Assembly: GCA_034717985.1 (NCBI GenBank)
Contig: JAYEMH010000002.1
Location: forward strand, 14,917 to 20,606
Source: JAYEMH01 sp034717985 [NCBI: Candidatus Ratteibacteria bacterium]
GTDB taxonomy: Bacteria; CAZDME01; JAYEMH01
DNA: 5,690 bases
Direction: 5' to 3'
The first letter of the stretch is position 1. Each line of letters starts with the position of its first letter. The position numbers and the translations under genes were made by a program. This document shows, in pieces, positions 1 to 5,690 of the stretch. Below the pieces are notes generated by a model. That model did not search any database, was not told the origin of the DNA, and was given only the letters and a program-made list of their open reading frames with translations.

Positions 1-1181
1 GCGGTTATTCCTAAAACTCTTCCTCCCCCGGTAACCAATTTTGAATTCGGGCCGCTTTCTAATTTGGTCCCGGCCTGAAAAACCATTACCTGCTTTTGCC
101 CGGTTAACTGCTCCAGTCCCTCAATAACCTTTCCCTTTTCGTATTCTCCCGGATATCCTTTAGAGGCCAGGATAACACAGACAGCCGCCCCCTTCTGCCA
201 TTTAAGTTTCTTATCCTTTAAACCACCCCCCTGGCGGCAAGCCGGTAGTAAATCTGCCAGATCGCTTTCTAAAAGGGGAAGAACAACTTGTGTTTCCGGA
301 TCACCGAAGCGGACATTATATTCCAGCACTTTCGGCCCCGCGGCGGTTATAATCAAACCGACATAAAGCGCCCCGCGATAAGGCGAGCCTTCTTTAACTA
401 ATCCGTCAATCGTCGGACGCAGGATTTTCTCCTCAATGTTTCTAAAAAGCTCTTCGGTAATTACCGACGCCGGAGCATAGGCTCCCATCCCGCCGGTATT
501 CGGTCCCTTTCCGCCGTCATAAATCTTTTTATGGTCCTGGGAGGAAACAAGCGGCAGAATATTTTCTCCGTCGCTTAAAACCAAAACCGTCGCTTCTTCT
601 CCTTCAAGAAATTCTTCAATCAGGACGGTTTTACCTGCCGCACCGAAGATTTTTTTAACCATTATCTTTTCAATCGCCTTTTTTCCTTCTTCCCGGCTTT
701 TGACAATAATGACACCCTTCCCGGCGGCTAAACCATCGGCTTTTACCACCACCGGTTTATTTTCGGAGGGTAAAAGTTCATCCAGATATTCCCCGGCAGA
801 ATCCGCCCGGTCAAAAATTTTAAATGAAGCAGTCGGAATGGCGTATTTCTGCATAAACCGTTTGGAAAAAACCTTACTTCCTTCAATAATGGCCGCTTTT
901 TTGTTCGGCCCGAAGATATTAAGTCCCTGCTTCTCAAAGAAATCTACAATACCCGAAACCAGAGGTTTCTCCGGCCCAACGATTGTCCAGTCAATCTTCT
1001 TCTTTTTGGCAAAATCAGCTATGGCTAAAAAATCATCCGGGTCAATATCAAGGCACTCGCCCAATTCGGCCATGCCGGCATTACCGGGCAGGCAGAAGAT
1101 TTTATTTACCTGCGGACTCTGTTTGAACTTCCAGGCCAGGGCGTGTTCCCGGCCGCCACTTCCAATAATTAGAATATTCAA
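1..1181 (-). CDS. purD: Phosphoribosylamine--glycine ligase (GAR synthetase), 3' end cut by window
   Basis: This ATP-grasp ligase joins 5-phosphoribosylamine and glycine with ATP to form GAR, the second step of cytosolic purine synthesis. The frame is open for 393 codons from a TTG start to the window edge. Visible motifs are the N-terminal GSGGREHAL (residues 7-15), LPGNAGMA (31-38), [10 protein letters not shown] (68-77), [13 protein letters not shown] (91-103), the ATP-grasp strand [14 protein letters not shown] (144-157), [14 protein letters not shown] (222-235) and the family signature RFGDPETQ (291-298). PurD is usually about 420-430 residues, so roughly the last 30 are missing. TTG at 1181-1179 is chosen because it gives [10 protein letters not shown], the normal family N-terminus, and because an in-frame TAA lies just upstream at 1205-1203 with no ATG or GTG between them. 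The Shine-Dalgarno is weak (a GAG about 10 bases upstream). It is the last visible gene of the operon, 91 bases after purH. I see no frameshift or missing catalytic motif. Confidence 0.97.
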
Positions 1182-1272
1182 TTTTTTTCGCTCGTTTATA
1201 TTTTACGCACCTAAGGAAGTTAAACTTCCGTAAAGTTGAACGAGATACAAAATACGAGATACGAGATACGAT
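1182..1272. other. purH-purD intergenic spacer
   Basis: This is the only true gap between genes in the window, at 91 bases. On its purH side it carries the ACGAGAT heptamer array, which continues into the purH stop codon. In the middle it has a short perfect inverted repeat, and on the purD side an A/T-rich leader. I see no good -10/-35 promoter pair and no T-tract after the hairpin, so purD is most likely co-transcribed with purH. No small coding frame with a credible ribosome binding site is visible. Confidence 0.7.
1215..1229. repeat. Short perfect inverted repeat in purH-purD spacer
   Basis: GGAAGTT and AACTTCC pair as a 7-bp inverted repeat around a single central A. In practice this is a 6-bp stem with a TAA loop. 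Neither strand has a run of T after it, so it is not a normal intrinsic terminator. It could be a minor mRNA hairpin between purH and purD that affects processing or stability, or it may be chance. The stem is too short to assign a role. Confidence 0.35.
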
Positions 1273-1274
1273 TT
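1240..1274. repeat. Heptamer tandem array, unit ACGAGAT (5 units)
   Basis: Five consecutive 7-base units occupy 35 bases. Those at 1240-1246, 1254-1260 and 1261-1267 are exactly ACGAGAT. The unit at 1247-1253 is ACAAAAT and the last, at 1268-1274, is ACGATTT, each two changes from consensus. The final unit overlaps the purH stop codon (TAA at 1275-1273), so the array begins inside the end of the purH frame and fills the first part of the spacer before purD. The period is the same as in the other four arrays of this window. In a suitable rotation the unit (GAGATAC) matches the TATGAGC-type unit (GAGCTAT) at 5 of 7 bases. Confidence 0.9.
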
Positions 1275-2862
1275 ATTGGTGCCGAAAATGCCTCATCCCG
1301 GTAAAAACCATGCTGATATTTTGTTCATCGCAGGCATTTATAACTTCTTCATCCCGCTTGGAGCCGCCCGGTTGAATAACCGCCTTGACCCCGATTTTGG
1401 CCGCTTCATCAATGGCGTCCCGGAAAGGGAAAAAGGCATCCGAGGCCAATACCAGCGGGTGGTTTTTATTTATTTCTATCTCTTTAAGCTTCATTATGGC
1501 AATTTTTACCGCATCCACCCGGGACATCTGTCCGGCTCCGATACCTACGGTTCGTTTACCCTGGGTGATAACAATAGCATTAGACTTGACGTGTTTAATC
1601 ACCCGCCAGGCGAAAAGCAAGGAGGCAAATTCAGCTTTAGTCGGCTTAACTTTGGTAACAACTTTTAAATCCTTTTCATTCAAGCGGACAAAATCCTTAT
1701 CCTGAACTAAAAATCCTCCTTTAAGAGCGCGATAATCCGGTTCCTTCTCCGTAAAATTTTCGGCTATTCCCGGAATTTCTATTAATCGGCGTTTACTTTT
1801 TTTCTTGAGAATATCCAAAGACCCGGCGCTGAACCCCGGGGCAATAATTACTTCCAGAAATTTTGTCCCCGCTAATTCCCCGGCCGTTTCTTCATCCACC
1901 GGCCGGTTCAGGCCGACTACCCCGCCAAAGGCTGAAAGTGTATCTCCGGCCAGCGCTTGACGATAGGCATTAGCCAGTGTTTCTGCCGAAGCCATCCCGC
2001 AGGGATTGGTATGTTTAATTACCACCGCCGTGGGCTTATTAAAACCGCTGATCGCTTCCCAGGCGGCATTCATATCAAGATAGTTATTAAATGATAACTC
2101 TTTTCCTTGCCGCTGTTTGACATCGGCCAATCCTGCCTTTCTTCCGTGAAAGCGGTAAAAAGCCGCTTTTTGATGCGGGTTTTCTCCGTACCTTAAATCC
2201 TGAATTTTTTCCAACCTGAGGGTTATCTCGTCAGGTATCTCTCCTATTTTCTGGTTTCTGGTTTCTGGTTTCTGGTTTCTTCCTGAAAGATATTGACTAA
2301 TAATGTAATCATATTGAGCAGTGGTTTCGAAAGCTTCTCTGGCCAAAGCCGAGCGAAATTCACCGGAAAGTGATCCCCGGTTTGATTCCAGCTCCTGGAT
2401 TAAACACCGGTATTGCTCCGGCCGGCTCACCACCCCCACCGATTGAAAATTTTTGGCCGCCGCTCTAATCAGGCTGCAGCCGCCGATATCAATATTCTCA
2501 ATCACTTCCTCAAAGGAAACCCCCTTTTTTGCCTTTACTTTCTCAAAGGGATAGAGATTAATTATCACCAAATCAATCGGCTTTATACCTGATTTTTCTA
2601 AGGTAAGCTTATCTTCAGGATTATCCCGCCGGGCTAAAATTGCCCCGAAGATAAAAGGATGAAGGGTTTTTACCCGCCCGCCCAGTATTTCTTCGGATTT
2701 GGTGTATTGGGCCACCGTGGTTACCGGAATGTTATTCTCCCGGAACAATTTAGCCGTCTTGCCGGTGGATAAAATCTCAATCCCCATTTTTTTAAGCGCC
2801 TGCCCGATTTCCAGAACGCCTTTTTTATCCGAAACACTGATTAAAGCCCTTTTTACCTTCAT
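1273..2862 (-). CDS. purH: Bifunctional AICAR formyltransferase / IMP cyclohydrolase
   Basis: PurH carries out the last two steps of IMP synthesis in the cytosol: AICAR plus 10-formyl-THF gives FAICAR, which is then cyclised to IMP. With the start used here it has 529 residues, a normal length. The N-terminal MGS-like cyclohydrolase domain has [20 protein letters not shown] (Lys65), NLYPF (Tyr104), NIDIGG (Asp125) and AAAKN (Lys137), matching the known catalytic residues. The C-terminal transformylase domain has [13 protein letters not shown] (225-237), KHTNPCG with its Lys-His pair (283-289), SDAFFPFRD (474-482), [10 protein letters not shown] (497-506) and the terminal FTGMRHFRH. An open frame continues upstream to a TTG at 2916, but those 18 codons are a heptamer array without a Shine-Dalgarno. 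The second of two adjacent ATGs (2862, five bases after AAGGA) is chosen, with 2865 as the alternative. Odd points are a heptamer-encoded insert at about residues 195-205, STGKTA where STGGTA is usual, and HPFIFGAIL where a conserved His is expected. Confidence 0.97.
2248..2280. repeat. Perfect heptamer tandem array, unit TTTCTGG, inside purH
   Basis: Four exact TTTCTGG units (2248-2254, 2255-2261, 2262-2268, 2269-2275) are followed by five bases of a fifth, with no mismatches over 33 bases. On the coding strand the unit is AGAAACC. It has no stop in this frame, and because 7 is not a multiple of 3 it is read as the low-complexity peptide [11 protein letters not shown], with a 7-residue period per three units. 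The insert falls in the variable linker between the cyclohydrolase and transformylase domains of PurH, just before the conserved [10 protein letters not shown] block. The perfection of the array suggests it is the youngest of the five here. Confidence 0.95.
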
Positions 2863-2865
2863 CAT

Positions 2866-2874
2866 TATCCTTCT
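2866..2874 (-). promoter_or_regulatory. Ribosome binding site that fixes the purH start
   Basis: On the minus strand the sequence AAGAAGGAT lies directly before two consecutive ATG codons. The AAGGA core is 2 bases from the first ATG (2865) and 5 bases from the second (2862), and the usual spacing favours the second. Nothing comparable precedes the TTG at 2916 that opens the longest possible frame. This supports a PurH beginning [12 protein letters not shown], which is the normal family N-terminus. Confidence 0.75.
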
Positions 2875-2885
2875 TTGATTTTTCC

Positions 2886-2913
2886 TTTGAGCTATCAGCG
2901 ATGAGCTATGAGC
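2886..2913. repeat. Heptamer tandem array, unit TATGAGC, between purM and purH
   Basis: Four 7-base units fill most of the purM-purH gap. They are TTTGAGC (2886-2892), TATCAGC (2893-2899), GATGAGC (2900-2906) and TATGAGC (2907-2913), each at most one change from TATGAGC. The array starts about 3 bases after the purM stop codon and ends shortly before the purH ribosome binding site. It has the same unit and orientation as the two arrays at the end of purL. Read in the purH frame it would encode AHSSSLIAQ, close to the SSKLIAH of the PurL tail, so it can mislead gene callers into extending PurH. Confidence 0.88.
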
Positions 2914-2916
2914 CAA

Positions 2917-3954
2917 TTAGACAACCCTGACCTCTTTCTTTCCCCGGATGATTGTGCCGATTGAATAGGCGCGCTGTCCCCTTTTCTTTAAATTTGCCAG
3001 AACCCTTTTTTCGTTTTGCCTCCCGACTATCAGTATCATACCGATGCCCATGTTAAAGGTGCGAAACATCTCATAGTCATTAATTTTTCCTTCTTTCCGG
3101 ATAAACTTAAAGATAGCCGGAACCGTCCAGCGTCCATTATCAATAACGGCAATTCTGTTTTCCGGGAGAATCCGTTTGATATTATCGTAAAATCCCCCCC
3201 CGGTAATATTGGCAATCCCTTTAATCAAGGATTTCCGTGCTAAGGCCAGAACCGGCTTTACATAAATGGCCGTCGGCTTGAGTAATTCATCGGACAGCTT
3301 TTTTCTTAAGGCGGGAACGAACCGGTCTATTTTATATTTTAACTGTTCGAAAAAAAGCTTTCGCACCAGCGAATAGCCGTTACTGTGCAGGCCGCTGGAG
3401 GCCAGGCCGATAATTATATCGCCGCGGGCAATTCTTTTGCCGGTAATCAGTTTTGATTTTTCAACAATTCCCACGGCAAACCCGGCTAAATCAAAACCTT
3501 CCGGCGGATAAACCCCGGGCATCTCGGCTGTTTCCCCGCCGAGCAAAGCGCAGCCGGCTTGCCGGCAGCCGTTAACGATTCCCTTAATCATTTCTTTGGT
3601 CTTCCTCCGGTCCAGTTTCCCGACCGAAATATAATCCAGGAAAAAGAGCGGCTCGGCGCCCTGAACAACCAAATCGTTTACCGACATTGCCACCAGGTCA
3701 ATTCCAATCGTATCAAACCGGCCGGCCATTTTCGCCGCCAAAATTTTTGTGCCCACCCCGTCGGTACAGGAAACCAGCAGCGGCTCTTTATAGCCGCCCA
3801 GGGCCAGCTTGAACAGGCCGCCGAAACCGCCGATTTCCCCGATAACTTCCTTCCTTTTCGTCCGCTGCAGCATCCGGCGGATTTCTTTTACCAGGCGGTT
3901 CCCTTCATTTATATTGACACCGGCTTTTTTATAACTTAAAGGCTCTTCTTTCAT
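2917..3954 (-). CDS. purM: Phosphoribosylformylglycinamidine cyclo-ligase (AIR synthetase)
   Basis: PurM closes the imidazole ring: FGAM plus ATP gives AIR, ADP and phosphate, the step directly after PurL. The protein is 345 residues, the usual family length, and complete. Motifs in order are SYKKAGV (7-13), GGFGGLF (42-48), DGVGTK (65-70), GIDLVAMSVNDLVVQGAEP (84-102), GGETAEMPG (139-147), SSGLHSNGYSL (186-196), KPTAIYVKP (226-234), ITGGGFYDN (250-258) and FRTFNMGIGM (297-306). These cover both the N-terminal AIRS domain with its nucleotide-binding part and the C-terminal AIRS domain. The ATG at 3954 forms an ATGA overlap with the purL TGA, so translation is probably coupled. The upstream AAGAG is only a weak and close ribosome binding site. 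The three glycine codons of the ITGGG motif form a run of eight G. purF, which precedes purM in Bacillus-type clusters, is absent. Confidence 0.98.
   Translation of the reverse strand: MKEEPLSYKKAGVNINEGNRLVKEIRRMLQRTKRKEVIGEIGGFGGLFKLALGGYKEPLLVSCTDGVGTKILAAKMAGRFDTIGIDLVAMSVNDLVVQGAEPLFFLDYISVGKLDRRKTKEMIKGIVNGCRQAGCALLGGETAEMPGVYPPEGFDLAGFAVGIVEKSKLITGKRIARGDIIIGLASSGLHSNGYSLVRKLFFEQLKYKIDRFVPALRKKLSDELLKPTAIYVKPVLALARKSLIKGIANITGGGFYDNIKRILPENRIAVIDNGRWTVPAIFKFIRKEGKINDYEMFRTFNMGIGMILIVGRQNEKRVLANLKKRGQRAYSIGTIIRGKKEVRVV
3951..3954 (-). promoter_or_regulatory. ATGA stop-start overlap coupling purL and purM
   Basis: On the minus strand the purL stop TGA (3953-3951) and the purM start ATG (3954-3952) share ATGA. 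Such 4-base overlaps usually mean that ribosomes finishing the first gene re-initiate on the second. Here that would link the amounts of two enzymes acting in consecutive steps. The overlap also implies that purM translation depends on reading through the repeat-derived purL tail. Confidence 0.8.
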
Positions 3955-5690
3955 CTCTTGTTTTTTCGCCTTGATTTTTTCCTATGCGCTATGAGCTTTG
4001 AGCTATGAGCTCTTTTTCTCTTTTTAGCTATAACCTTTAGTTTAACTTTTTTTCCCTTCTTTCGCTTTACTTTTATTTTACTCGTTTTTGCCTTGGCTTT
4101 TTTGAGCCTCTTCTTCGCCTTGGGCTTTTTTTTATGAGCTATGAGCTTTGAGCTAAAAGCTTTTTTCCTTTCCTTAAGTAATTTGTCAAAGGTATCTTCC
4201 CACCCTTGTACCAGCCGCTTTAACGGTATATTTACTAATTTCTCTCCGGTGGTGGAAATTAAAAGCGCCTGGCCTTCTACTTTTCCAATCGGCCGGAAGT
4301 TAACCTTAAATTTCCGGGCTAAATCCTGAAGCTCAAGCAGCCGCCGGGGTGAAAACGACATAATGATACGGGACTGAGATTCCCCGAAGAGCAGGGCATC
4401 GGTCCTGATTGGCTCCCGGGTCTTAAATTCCATTTGCGGCCCTCCCTTACGCCAGCCAAAGACAATGTCTGTCAGTTTGATATTTGCCCCTAATTTCTTT
4501 TTCGGGTTAGACAGACAGCATTCGGCTAAAGCGGCTGCCAGTCCCCCTTCGGAGCAATCATGAGCCGAATTAATCCATCCCCGGCCGATAGCCGCCAAAC
4601 AAAAATCCTGCCCTCTTTTTTCTAAATTCCAGTCAATCTCCGGCGCATCGCCTTTTTTCAAGTTGTGAATAACCTTTAAATATTCACTTCCTCCTAATTC
4701 CGCTTTCGTTTCGCCGATTAAAGCGATCATGTCCCCTTTATTTTTAAACCAGGGCGTGGTAATCTTTTGATAATCATCGATTACCCCGACCATCCCGATT
4801 ATCGGCGAAGGATCAATGGAACCTTGCGGATTTTCATTATGAAGGCTGACGTTTCCGCTGACTACCGGCGTGTTTAACTGCCGGCAGGCCTCACTAATTC
4901 CCTCGATACATTTCCGTAACTGCCAGAAACTTTCCGGTTTCTGGGGATTGCCAAAATTCAAGCCATCCGTAACCGCTAAAGGCCTTGCTCCGCAGCAAAC
5001 CAAATTACGGCCTGCCTCCGCCACGGCAATTGCTCCGCCCCGATAAGGATTAAGATAGCAGTAAGTGCTGTTCCCGTTAATTGACCAGGCCACTGCCTTC
5101 CGGCTGTTGGGCAGTCGGACTGCGGCCGCCTCGGAGCTGGGACCCAGGGCAATTCTTTTTCTCAAGGCCGGTTTAATCTGATTATGAATCTTTTCTTTGC
5201 CAGCCAGATTGGCCCCGGTCAAAAGCTTTAACAAAACCTGATTATAATTTTTACCTGAATCGACTTGTCCCATATCAAAATTCATCGTCTCGGCGATGTA
5301 TCCGGGAGTTTTTATCTCCCTTTGGTATTCAGGCGCCTCGGTCAGAATTGCCGCCGGCACTTCGGCCACCACTTTCCCTTCTTCTTTAATCCGCAGTTGT
5401 CCGTCATCGGTTACCAGGCCGATTTTAACCGCCGGGACTTTCCACTTTTTAAGAATTTGCAGGGCTAAAGCTTCCTTTTCTTTGTTTAGCACTAAGAGCA
5501 TTCTTTCCTGCGATTCGGAGAGCAGCACCTCATAAGGATTCATCCGGGGGGATTTTCTGGGCACCAGGCTAACATCGATTTCCATCCCCCGTCCGCCCTT
5601 ATACGCCATCTCGGAAGTGGAGCAGACTAATCCGGCCGCGCCCATATCCTGCATCCCTTCTACGTAATTTTTCTCTATCAGTTCCAGGCA
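3951..5690 (-). CDS. purL: FGAM synthase, small-type PurL subunit, 5' end cut by window, with basic tail
   Basis: This is the synthetase subunit that converts FGAR to FGAM with ATP, using ammonia from glutamine delivered by PurQ and held by PurS in the small-type complex. About 579 residues are visible. The open frame continues to the window edge, so the Met at 5654 is internal. Roughly the first 160 residues of a protein of about 740 are missing. Motifs include MQDMGAAGL, YEVLLSESQERMLLV, PYRGGAIAVAEAGRNLVCCGA, VTDGLNFGNP, PVVSGNVSLHNE, GGSEYLKVI, AHDCSEGGLAAALAE and LFGESQSRI, covering the first AIRS C-terminal domain and the second AIRS pair. The position that is usually GDAAV near the second AIRS domain reads SSEAAAV. 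The conserved core ends near LVQGWEDTFDKLLKE and is followed by a very basic tail of 67 residues framed by heptamer arrays. The TGA stop overlaps the purM start. The family assignment is secure, but the biological status of the tail is not. Confidence 0.97.
   Translation of the reverse strand, partial: CLELIEKNYVEGMQDMGAAGLVCSTSEMAYKGGRGMEIDVSLVPRKSPRMNPYEVLLSESQERMLLVLNKEKEALALQILKKWKVPAVKIGLVTDDGQLRIKEEGKVVAEVPAAILTEAPEYQREIKTPGYIAETMNFDMGQVDSGKNYNQVLLKLLTGANLAGKEKIHNQIKPALRKRIALGPSSEAAAVRLPNSRKAVAWSINGNSTYCYLNPYRGGAIAVAEAGRNLVCCGARPLAVTDGLNFGNPQKPESFWQLRKCIEGISEACRQLNTPVVSGNVSLHNENPQGSIDPSPIIGMVGVIDDYQKITTPWFKNKGDMIALIGETKAELGGSEYLKVIHNLKKGDAPEIDWNLEKRGQDFCLAAIGRGWINSAHDCSEGGLAAALAECCLSNPKKKLGANIKLTDIVFGWRKGGPQMEFKTREPIRTDALLFGESQSRIIMSFSPRRLLELQDLARKFKVNFRPIGKVEGQALLISTTGEKLVNIPLKRLVQGWEDTFDKLLKERKKAFSSKLIAHKKKPKAKKRLKKAKAKTSKIKVKRKKGKKVKLKVIAKKRKRAHSSKLIAHRKKSRRKNKR
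3954..4154 (-). other. Lys/Arg-rich C-terminal tail of PurL (67 residues)
   Basis: This region of purL encodes 67 residues, of which 28 are Lys and 8 are Arg by my count, with no Asp or Glu. It begins SSKLIAH, carries about 40 residues built from K, A, R, V and I that resemble histone H1-like or other disordered nucleic-acid-binding tails, and then repeats SSKLIAH before ending in a basic run. Small-type PurL proteins normally stop close to the preceding Trp-containing segment. Both SSKLIAH copies are translated heptamer arrays in the same frame. The tail may be a real disordered extension, or coding sequence gained when repeats moved the stop codon downstream. No fold or known domain is recognisable. 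Confidence 0.75.
3983..4010. repeat. Heptamer tandem array, unit TATGAGC, at the 3' end of purL
   Basis: Four units are TATGCGC (3983-3989), TATGAGC (3990-3996), TTTGAGC (3997-4003) and TATGAGC (4004-4010). The array lies inside the purL frame, about 30 bases before its stop, and is translated as AHSSKLIAH. It matches the array at 4133-4160 at 25 of 28 positions when aligned unit by unit. Confidence 0.92.
4133..4160. repeat. Heptamer tandem array, unit TATGAGC, at the junction of PurL core and tail
   Basis: Four units are TATGAGC (4133-4139), TATGAGC (4140-4146), TTTGAGC (4147-4153) and TAAAAGC (4154-4160). It sits where the conserved PurL sequence gives way to the basic tail and is translated as part of AFSSKLIAH. 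It lies exactly 150 bp, or 50 codons, from the partner array at 3983-4010, so both copies are read in the same frame. Confidence 0.92.

What the first reader, a model, noticed from the sequence alone, without database searches (positions are those of the whole stretch)
1240..4160. Five 7-base tandem arrays of nearly constant size in one purine operon
Arrays at 1240-1274, 2248-2280, 2886-2913, 3983-4010 and 4133-4160 all have a period of exactly 7 and about four to five units, yet use three different unit sequences (ACGAGAT, TTTCTGG, TATGAGC). Constant period and copy number with a changing unit points to a mechanism that measures 7-base steps, rather than chance slippage on one motif. Heptanucleotide STRR repeats of heterocystous cyanobacteria are the closest known analogue. 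Their density here, in core metabolic genes, is striking.
Basis: partly seen in the sequence, partly recalled or inferred. Interest (0 to 1): 0.75.

Follow-up and report, generated by a model that had tools for sequence, protein, structure and literature searches.

The report
Seven-base tandem repeats in purine operon
Five short stretches of DNA repeated in seven-base steps sit in the spare spaces of a bacterial purine-synthesis operon; seven-base repeats are a known quirk of bacterial genomes, but related bacteria carry separate ones, mostly with different letters, in the same loop of the same enzyme, which points to a copying error with a built-in seven-base step.

Summary
In detail: Tandem Repeats Finder (TRF) finds all five arrays, 3.3-4.7 copies, three unit families; 0 of 300 Markov-3 copies of the window has a period-7 array at score >=38, the window has four plus one read as period 14. 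The operon encodes PurL, PurM, PurH, PurD; the arrays sit in two gaps, a variable PurH loop and an extra PurL tail. The window's genome is not held, so relatives were tested. In 455 kb of G065, a repeat-rich Omnitrophota-phylum genome, period 7 gives 38 arrays against 0.0 shuffled; another, G083, has none in 100 kb. Of 203 PurH genes, 12 carry a heptamer array (score >=40) in that same loop, mostly with different units. At score >=36 the loop holds 12 period-7 and 6 other arrays; the rest of PurH 0 and 22. A reading frame would favour multiples of three, so the step looks mutational. Heptamers as the commonest long bacterial repeat, and a polymerase-step explanation, are already published (Mrazek 2007, as told in PMC4679880): a new member of a known kind, with a clean natural test.

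The parts
1240..1271 (.). Array 1, period 7, 4.6 copies, unit ACGAGAT; in the 91-nt purH-purD gap, 58 nt before the purD start on the minus strand
   Evidence: TRF; ORFs; self-comparison
2248..2280 (.). Array 2, perfect period 7, 4.7 copies, unit TTTCTGG (minus strand AGAAACC); in frame inside purH, encodes [11 protein letters not shown] in a length-variable loop
   Evidence: TRF; PurH alignments
2888..2913 (.). Array 3, period 7, 3.7 copies, GAGCTWT family (78% matches); in the 54-nt purM-purH gap, 25 nt before the purH ATG at 2862
   Evidence: TRF; ORFs; missed by the stricter scan
3982..4011 (.). Array 4, period 7, 4.3 copies, GAGCTWT family; in the PurL C-terminal tail, 27 nt before the purM start
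   Evidence: TRF
4133..4163 (.). Array 5, period 7 (3.3 copies, 4133-4155) or 14 (4135-4163), GAGCTWT family; in the PurL C-terminal tail
   Evidence: TRF
1273..2862 (-). purH (bifunctional AICAR formyltransferase/IMP cyclohydrolase)
   Evidence: NCBIfam NF002049, 702.9 bits, cut-off 402
2917..3954 (-). purM (AIR synthase)
   Evidence: TIGR00878, 452.1 bits, cut-off 236.35
3951..5690 (-). purL, C-terminal part (runs off the window); residues after 504 of 579 lie beyond the end of the best PurL profile match
   Evidence: NF002290 matches residues 1-504 to positions 237-722 of 723, 495.9 bits (cut-off 648 is for the whole protein; the gene is cut by the window)
3..1181 (-). purD (GAR synthetase; runs off the window at its C-terminal end)
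   Evidence: TIGR00877, 496.5 bits, cut-off 288

Best explanation
The five arrays are heptanucleotide simple-sequence repeats made by a mutational process with a preferred step of seven bases: slipped or re-copied strands during replication or repair that duplicate about seven bases at a time. Selection only decides where they survive: gaps between genes, a loop of PurH that tolerates extra residues, and a dispensable-looking PurL tail. The preference for seven is shown by comparison with relatives; that the agent is the replicating polymerase or a repair step is inferred. In some relatives the same unit turns up at unlinked places and as facing (inverted) arms, so arrays or their seeds are also copied between places and strands; how is not known. 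I found no evidence of a function in purine metabolism, but expression could not be tested here.
For: Not chance: 0 of 300 Markov-3 copies have a period-7 array at score >=38. Period 7 preferred in a relative: G065, 455 kb, 38 against 0.0 (mean of 3 shuffles). Not set by coding needs: of 203 distinct PurH genes, 12 have a period-7/14/21 array at score >=40 in one loop; at score >=36 the loop holds 12 period-7 arrays and 6 others (periods 8, 8, 12, 12, 14, 21), the rest of PurH (residues above 20) 0 period-7 and 22 others (loop limits were set after seeing the arrays). Separate origins: the 12 carriers need 12 changes on a FastTree PurH tree without the loop columns, and units differ. Permissive sites: in G065 35 of 60 arrays lie in ORFs against 55.7 expected (crude ORF calling). 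Copying between places: GGGTATC at 3 contigs of G290 and in 0 of 12 other genomes; GTCACAA at 3 contigs of G329 and also 3 of G387; CCAGGG-family arrays at 3 sites within 11 kb of G035.
Against: Slippage alone does not explain unit reuse at unlinked places, nor facing arms (20 of 65 arrays in G065, 21 of 42 in G010, 4 of 7 in G081, 1 of 9 in G328, 0 of 5 in the window; direct partners 1, 2, 0, 1, 0), nor why GAGCTWT occurs in 20 of 384 genomes while its mirror image occurs in 3. Two loop units were found only at the loop (G165, G202). The preference is uneven: G083 0 period-7 arrays in 100 kb; the unselected part of G010 2 in 168.5 kb, with more at periods 8 (5) and 16 (8). G065 was picked because it is rich in AAACCAG, and 5 of the 12 loop arrays (L201, L202, L203, L213, L214) come from its relatives, which I fetched for that reason. 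Outside the loop L243 and L014 each have one period-14 array at score >=40, L014's at the extreme start of the open frame. Slippage was not seen happening: there are no population data.
Confidence: 0.6

Rival explanations
1. The arrays are arms or remnants of selected hairpin elements in RNA or DNA (3'-end, terminator-like or REP-like), so the heptamer period comes from a structural element that is kept and copied.
For: In relatives arrays often have an inverted partner within 100 bp (20 of 65 in G065, 21 of 42 in G010, 4 of 7 in G081; direct partners 1, 2, 0), and six examples that I chose fold with -17 to -74 kcal/mol, without a shuffle control; 10 of 10 neighbouring pairs among 42 AACCAGW clusters in G065 are inverted, all of one type.
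Against: 0 of 5 window arrays have an inverted partner, 1 of 9 in G328; array 2 and the PurH-loop arrays lie in coding sequence. Y1 transposase (RAYT-type) genes are about as common in genomes with heptamer arrays (15 of 18) as in the comparison genomes (16 of 20, whose array content was mostly not examined), and at 6 checked RAYT places the only array within 400 bp is a different 14-bp palindromic element.
Confidence: 0.15
2. [quoted passage not shown]
For: Arrays 1, 3 and 4 lie 58, 25 and 27 nt upstream of the purD, purH and purM starts.
Against: The unit of array 1 differs from that of arrays 3 and 4; arrays 2 and 5 are far from a gene start; the gaps are 91 and 54 nt long, so anything in them is near a start. 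In relatives arrays also lie in a coding loop.
Confidence: 0.1
3. Phase-variable contingency repeats: gain or loss of a 7-base unit in purH shifts the frame and switches purine synthesis.
For: Array 2 is perfect and in frame; one unit more or less would break the frame.
Against: Only 3.3-4.7 copies, few for high-rate switching (general knowledge). The 12 loop arrays counted are in frame, but the count required a long open frame, so this is biased. In G388, left out of the count, PurH is broken, but the break lies downstream of its array.
Confidence: 0.06

Closest known systems
Heptanucleotide long simple-sequence repeats (LSSR) of prokaryotes, Mrazek et al. 2007 (paper not held; known to me as told in the introductions of PMC4679880 and PMC4692102)
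   Same: Heptanucleotides are told to be the most abundant long-repeat class in most genomes, and a 7-nt polymerase contact was proposed; many different units
   Different: Here one coding loop of one core gene carries separate arrays in many lineages, and relatives show facing arms and unit reuse
TAACTGA repeats of marine Beggiatoaceae (MacGregor 2015, PMC4679880; abstract and sections 3, 15, 24 read)
   Same: Short heptamer arrays near start codons and at the ends of ORFs; patchy distribution suggesting copying or transfer
   Different: One fixed unit there; several units here, and arrays in a coding loop
GGGNATC G-quadruplex repeats of Xanthomonas and Nostoc (Rehm 2015, PMC4692102; abstract and introduction read)
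   Same: Heptamer period; four units preferred there, 3.3-4.7 here
   Different: The units here have no GGG tract, so no G-quadruplex rationale
STRR of heterocystous cyanobacteria (name recalled; PMC4692102 tells of three heptanucleotides in Calothrix)
   Same: Heptanucleotide tandem repeats with several units
   Different: Nearest PurH matches are not cyanobacterial; three of five arrays here lie within ORFs; STRR unit sequences were not compared
REPINs / RAYT-mobilised palindromes (PMC3116915 and PMC2817692, search listing only)
   Same: Dispersed short elements with facing arms in some relatives
   Different: No association with RAYT genes found; the window arrays have no facing arms

Membership tests
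Heptanucleotide LSSR | Tandem period 7, longer than chance for the sequence | tested here: met
   five arrays; 0 of 300 Markov-3 copies with a period-7 array at score >=38
Heptanucleotide LSSR | Period 7 enriched over other periods in the own genome | not testable with these tools
   Genome not held; met in relative G065, not in G083
STRR of cyanobacteria | Intergenic heptamer repeats in cyanobacteria (recalled) | tested here: not met
   Arrays 2, 4 and 5 are in ORFs; the best PurH matches are Omnitrophota
STRR of cyanobacteria | The STRR unit sequences | not tested
   No STRR units were at hand
TAACTGA regulatory repeats | Unit TAACTGA, mostly within several nt of start codons | tested here: not met
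   No such unit among the arrays; distances 58, 25 and 27 nt, and only for 3 of 5
Phase-variation contingency locus | Copy number varies in the population and switches expression | not testable with these tools
   One record only; 3.3-4.7 copies
REPIN/RAYT system | Palindromic repeat pair | tested here: not met
   0 of 5 inverted partners in the window
REPIN/RAYT system | Link with a RAYT gene | tested here: inconclusive
   Own genome not held; in relatives no association (15 of 18 against 16 of 20; 0 of 6 RAYT places with a period-7 array within 400 bp)

The most novel reading that the evidence does not exclude
Some bacteria, the Omnitrophota among them, possess a copying activity with a built-in seven-base step, perhaps a particular repair polymerase or a strand-switching route, that lays down short heptamer arrays and facing hairpin arms, re-uses favoured units such as GAGCTWT across scattered genomes, and keeps writing new peptide into tolerant protein loops such as that of PurH.
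Probability: 0.12. Interest if true: 0.8.

Novelty: new member of a known kind. Interest (0 to 1): 0.45.

Why it matters
Why seven is the favoured long-repeat length in bacteria is open as far as I know. A coding loop that holds 12 seemingly separate heptamer arrays, in a place where the reading frame would favour multiples of three, separates mutation from selection and gives a ready set of sites for testing the step length; it also shows a way in which new peptide enters a core enzyme.

Tried and rejected
Cross-genome meaning of the AAACCAG unit: found in 8 of 237 genomes, but its mirror image also in 8, so its sharing by the window and G065 means nothing by itself. GAGCTWT exceeds its mirror (20 against 3 of 384), but in 50 genomes of other phyla (50 of the 72 I first asked for) it occurs in 0 and the mirror in 3. 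The GAGCTWT carriers are scattered on the PurH tree (11 rows need 11 changes); 9 of the 20 carriers had no PurH row in that tree.

Arrays 3, 4 and 5 as copies of a longer element: flanks not convincingly alike (the best pair, 4 and 5, is reached by 47 of 1000 shuffles). Spread by RAYT: no support. Viral-contig scans for GAGCTWT gave 5 stretches against 2 for the mirror; not followed up. Placement of the window: highest PurH identity 58% to Omnitrophota, but no supported place, so it is called Omnitrophota-like only.

Failed controls of mine: one search used a badly phased pattern that misses even its own genome and was repeated in the right phase; the mirror pattern was mistyped (period 6) and was replaced. 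Of 212 sources, 9 gave no distinct full PurH and were dropped before the count: L131, L143, L155 and L158 (second fetches of the genomes of L004, L003, L001 and L002), and L200, L209, L217, L218, L219. L200 (G388) does have a heptamer array in the same loop, but its frame breaks downstream, so it is uncounted. Weaker loop arrays in L161 (34) and L248 (38) are below score 40; L243 and L014 have a period-14 array outside the loop. At score >=30 further two-copy period-7 matches lie elsewhere in PurH, which is what shuffles give. Literature: 8 searches.

Full report
What is there. The window is the minus strand of a purine operon: PurL (C-terminal part), PurM, PurH and PurD. TRF confirms five period-7 arrays of 3.3-4.7 copies with three unit families: ACGAGAT, TTTCTGG and, three times, GAGCTWT. 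In 300 Markov-3 copies of the window no period-7 array reaches score 38. A self-comparison scan finds four of the five, and besides them one period-4 place.

Where they lie. Array 1 is in the 91-nt purH-purD gap and array 3 in the 54-nt purM-purH gap. Array 2 is in frame in PurH, between the conserved ...YL and LRYGENP motifs, where relatives vary in length; the loop measure is 40 residues in the window against a median of 36 in 191 genes without a counted array. Arrays 4 and 5 lie in the 75 residues of PurL beyond the end of the family profile. All five are thus in places that seem to tolerate extra sequence.

Is period 7 special? The window's genome is not held, so I used relatives. The best PurH matches are Candidatus Omnitrophota and their phylum at 53-56%, but the trees do not place the window firmly. 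In G065, chosen because it is rich in AAACCAG, the first 20 kb or less of contigs 1-35 (455 kb) hold 38 period-7 and 19 period-14 arrays; three Markov-3 shuffles average 0.0 and 2.3; no other period exceeds 9. In the 80 loci period 7 gives 22 against 0 in one shuffle, but periods 9, 12, 14 and 15 are also raised (12, 28, 18, 18 against 0, 6, 9, 3). The preference is uneven: G083 has no period-7 array in 100 kb, G081 has 1 (plus 5 of period 14), and the stretches of G010 and G328 not chosen for hits have 2 each in 168.5 and 96.5 kb, G010 with 5 of period 8 and 8 of period 16.

The PurH loop as a trap. Among 203 distinct PurH genes (of 212 sources; 9 dropped), 12 have a period-7/14/21 array at TRF score >=40 in one loop (centres at window residues 212-218, counted with the 18-residue upstream extension). 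The units are GTCGCCG, GTCACAA, GCCAGGG, GGGGCCG, AACAAAC, GAGACCG (as a 21-bp period), GACAGGA with AGTCACC, GCTACAG, TCAGAAG, GGGTATC, AGCTCAG and the window's AGAAACC. GCCAGGG and GGGGCCG differ by one base after rotation. Outside the loop, L243 and L014 have one period-14 array each, L014's at the extreme start of the open frame. Eleven carriers are among 130 Omnitrophota-side genes (L006, titled Planctomycetales, falls inside them), one is the window, and none is among 72 others. The sample is not random: five carriers come from relatives of G065 that I fetched for it. On a FastTree PurH tree without the loop columns the 12 carriers need 12 changes, so the arrays seem to have arisen or arrived separately. 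At score >=36 the loop has 12 period-7 arrays (here with L248, and with L214 under period 21) and 6 of other periods; the rest of PurH has none of period 7 and 22 of others (the loop limits were drawn after seeing the arrays). A frame-keeping loop should favour multiples of three; it shows seven. I read this as a mutational step, not a coding or regulatory choice.

Birth or copying? Both seem to occur. The loop unit is found elsewhere in its own genome in G290 (3 contigs), G329 (3 contigs; also 3 in G387) and G035 (a CCAGGG family at three sites in 11 kb), but only at the loop in G165 and G202. GAGCTWT, the window's main unit, is in 20 of 384 genomes of the phylum against 3 for its mirror image, scattered over the tree (only 11 of the 20 could be placed), and in 0 of 50 genomes of other phyla, where the mirror is in 3. 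AAACCAG shows no such excess (8 against 8 of 237).

Facing arms. In relatives many arrays have an inverted partner within 100 bp: 20 of 65 in G065, 21 of 42 in G010, 4 of 7 in G081, 1 of 9 in G328; direct partners 1, 2, 0, 1; random places 1, 2, 0, 0 (the G010 and G328 samples include stretches chosen for hits). Six examples that I chose fold with -17 to -74 kcal/mol, without a shuffle control. The window has 0 of 5. RAYT-type transposases do not explain it: 15 of 18 genomes with arrays and 16 of 20 comparison genomes have them, and of 6 RAYT places checked one has an array within 400 bp, a different 14-bp element.

Known or new. Per MacGregor 2015 (PMC4679880) and Rehm 2015 (PMC4692102), Mrazek et al. 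2007 already found heptanucleotide repeats to be the commonest long class in most, or over-represented in many, bacterial genomes, and suggested a 7-nt polymerase contact; I could not read that paper. Eight literature searches listed no paper whose title or abstract start tells of heptamers in PurH or in Omnitrophota; one paper holds both 'Omnitrophota' and 'tandem repeats' (PMC9875498, listing only), and none holds both 'purH' and 'heptanucleotide'. This says little beyond that library. I file the window as a new member of a known kind, with the PurH loop as a useful natural experiment.

Noticed in passing
window 3951-4178 (minus strand): PurL carries a lysine-rich C-terminal tail of 75 residues beyond the family profile, holding arrays 4 and 5.
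   Followed up: partly
L127 5675-6410 (G065): A Y1 transposase gene is flanked on both sides by a palindromic GCAGGCACCCTGC element that also occurs at other G065 loci: a RAYT-REP-like pair distinct from the heptamer arrays.
   Followed up: partly
L161 6871-6901 (G065): A perfect heptamer array (GTTCTCC, 4.4 copies) lies inside the ORF 5678-7108, which reads like a tRNA-modification GTPase (name recalled), as an in-frame insert.
   Followed up: no
L161 8507-8551 (G065): An AGAAACC array followed by a facing CTGGTTTCTG arm sits just downstream of purH, where window array 1 also sits, with a different unit.
   Followed up: partly
L200 8589-10096 (G388): PurH is broken in this draft genome downstream of a heptamer array in the loop (two reading frames).
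   Followed up: partly
L346-L365 (G010): Besides period 7, this genome shows many period-8 and period-16 arrays (11 and 12 in 278 kb).
   Followed up: no
window 1215-1229: Near-palindrome GGAAGTTAAACTTCC between array 1 and purD.
   Followed up: no
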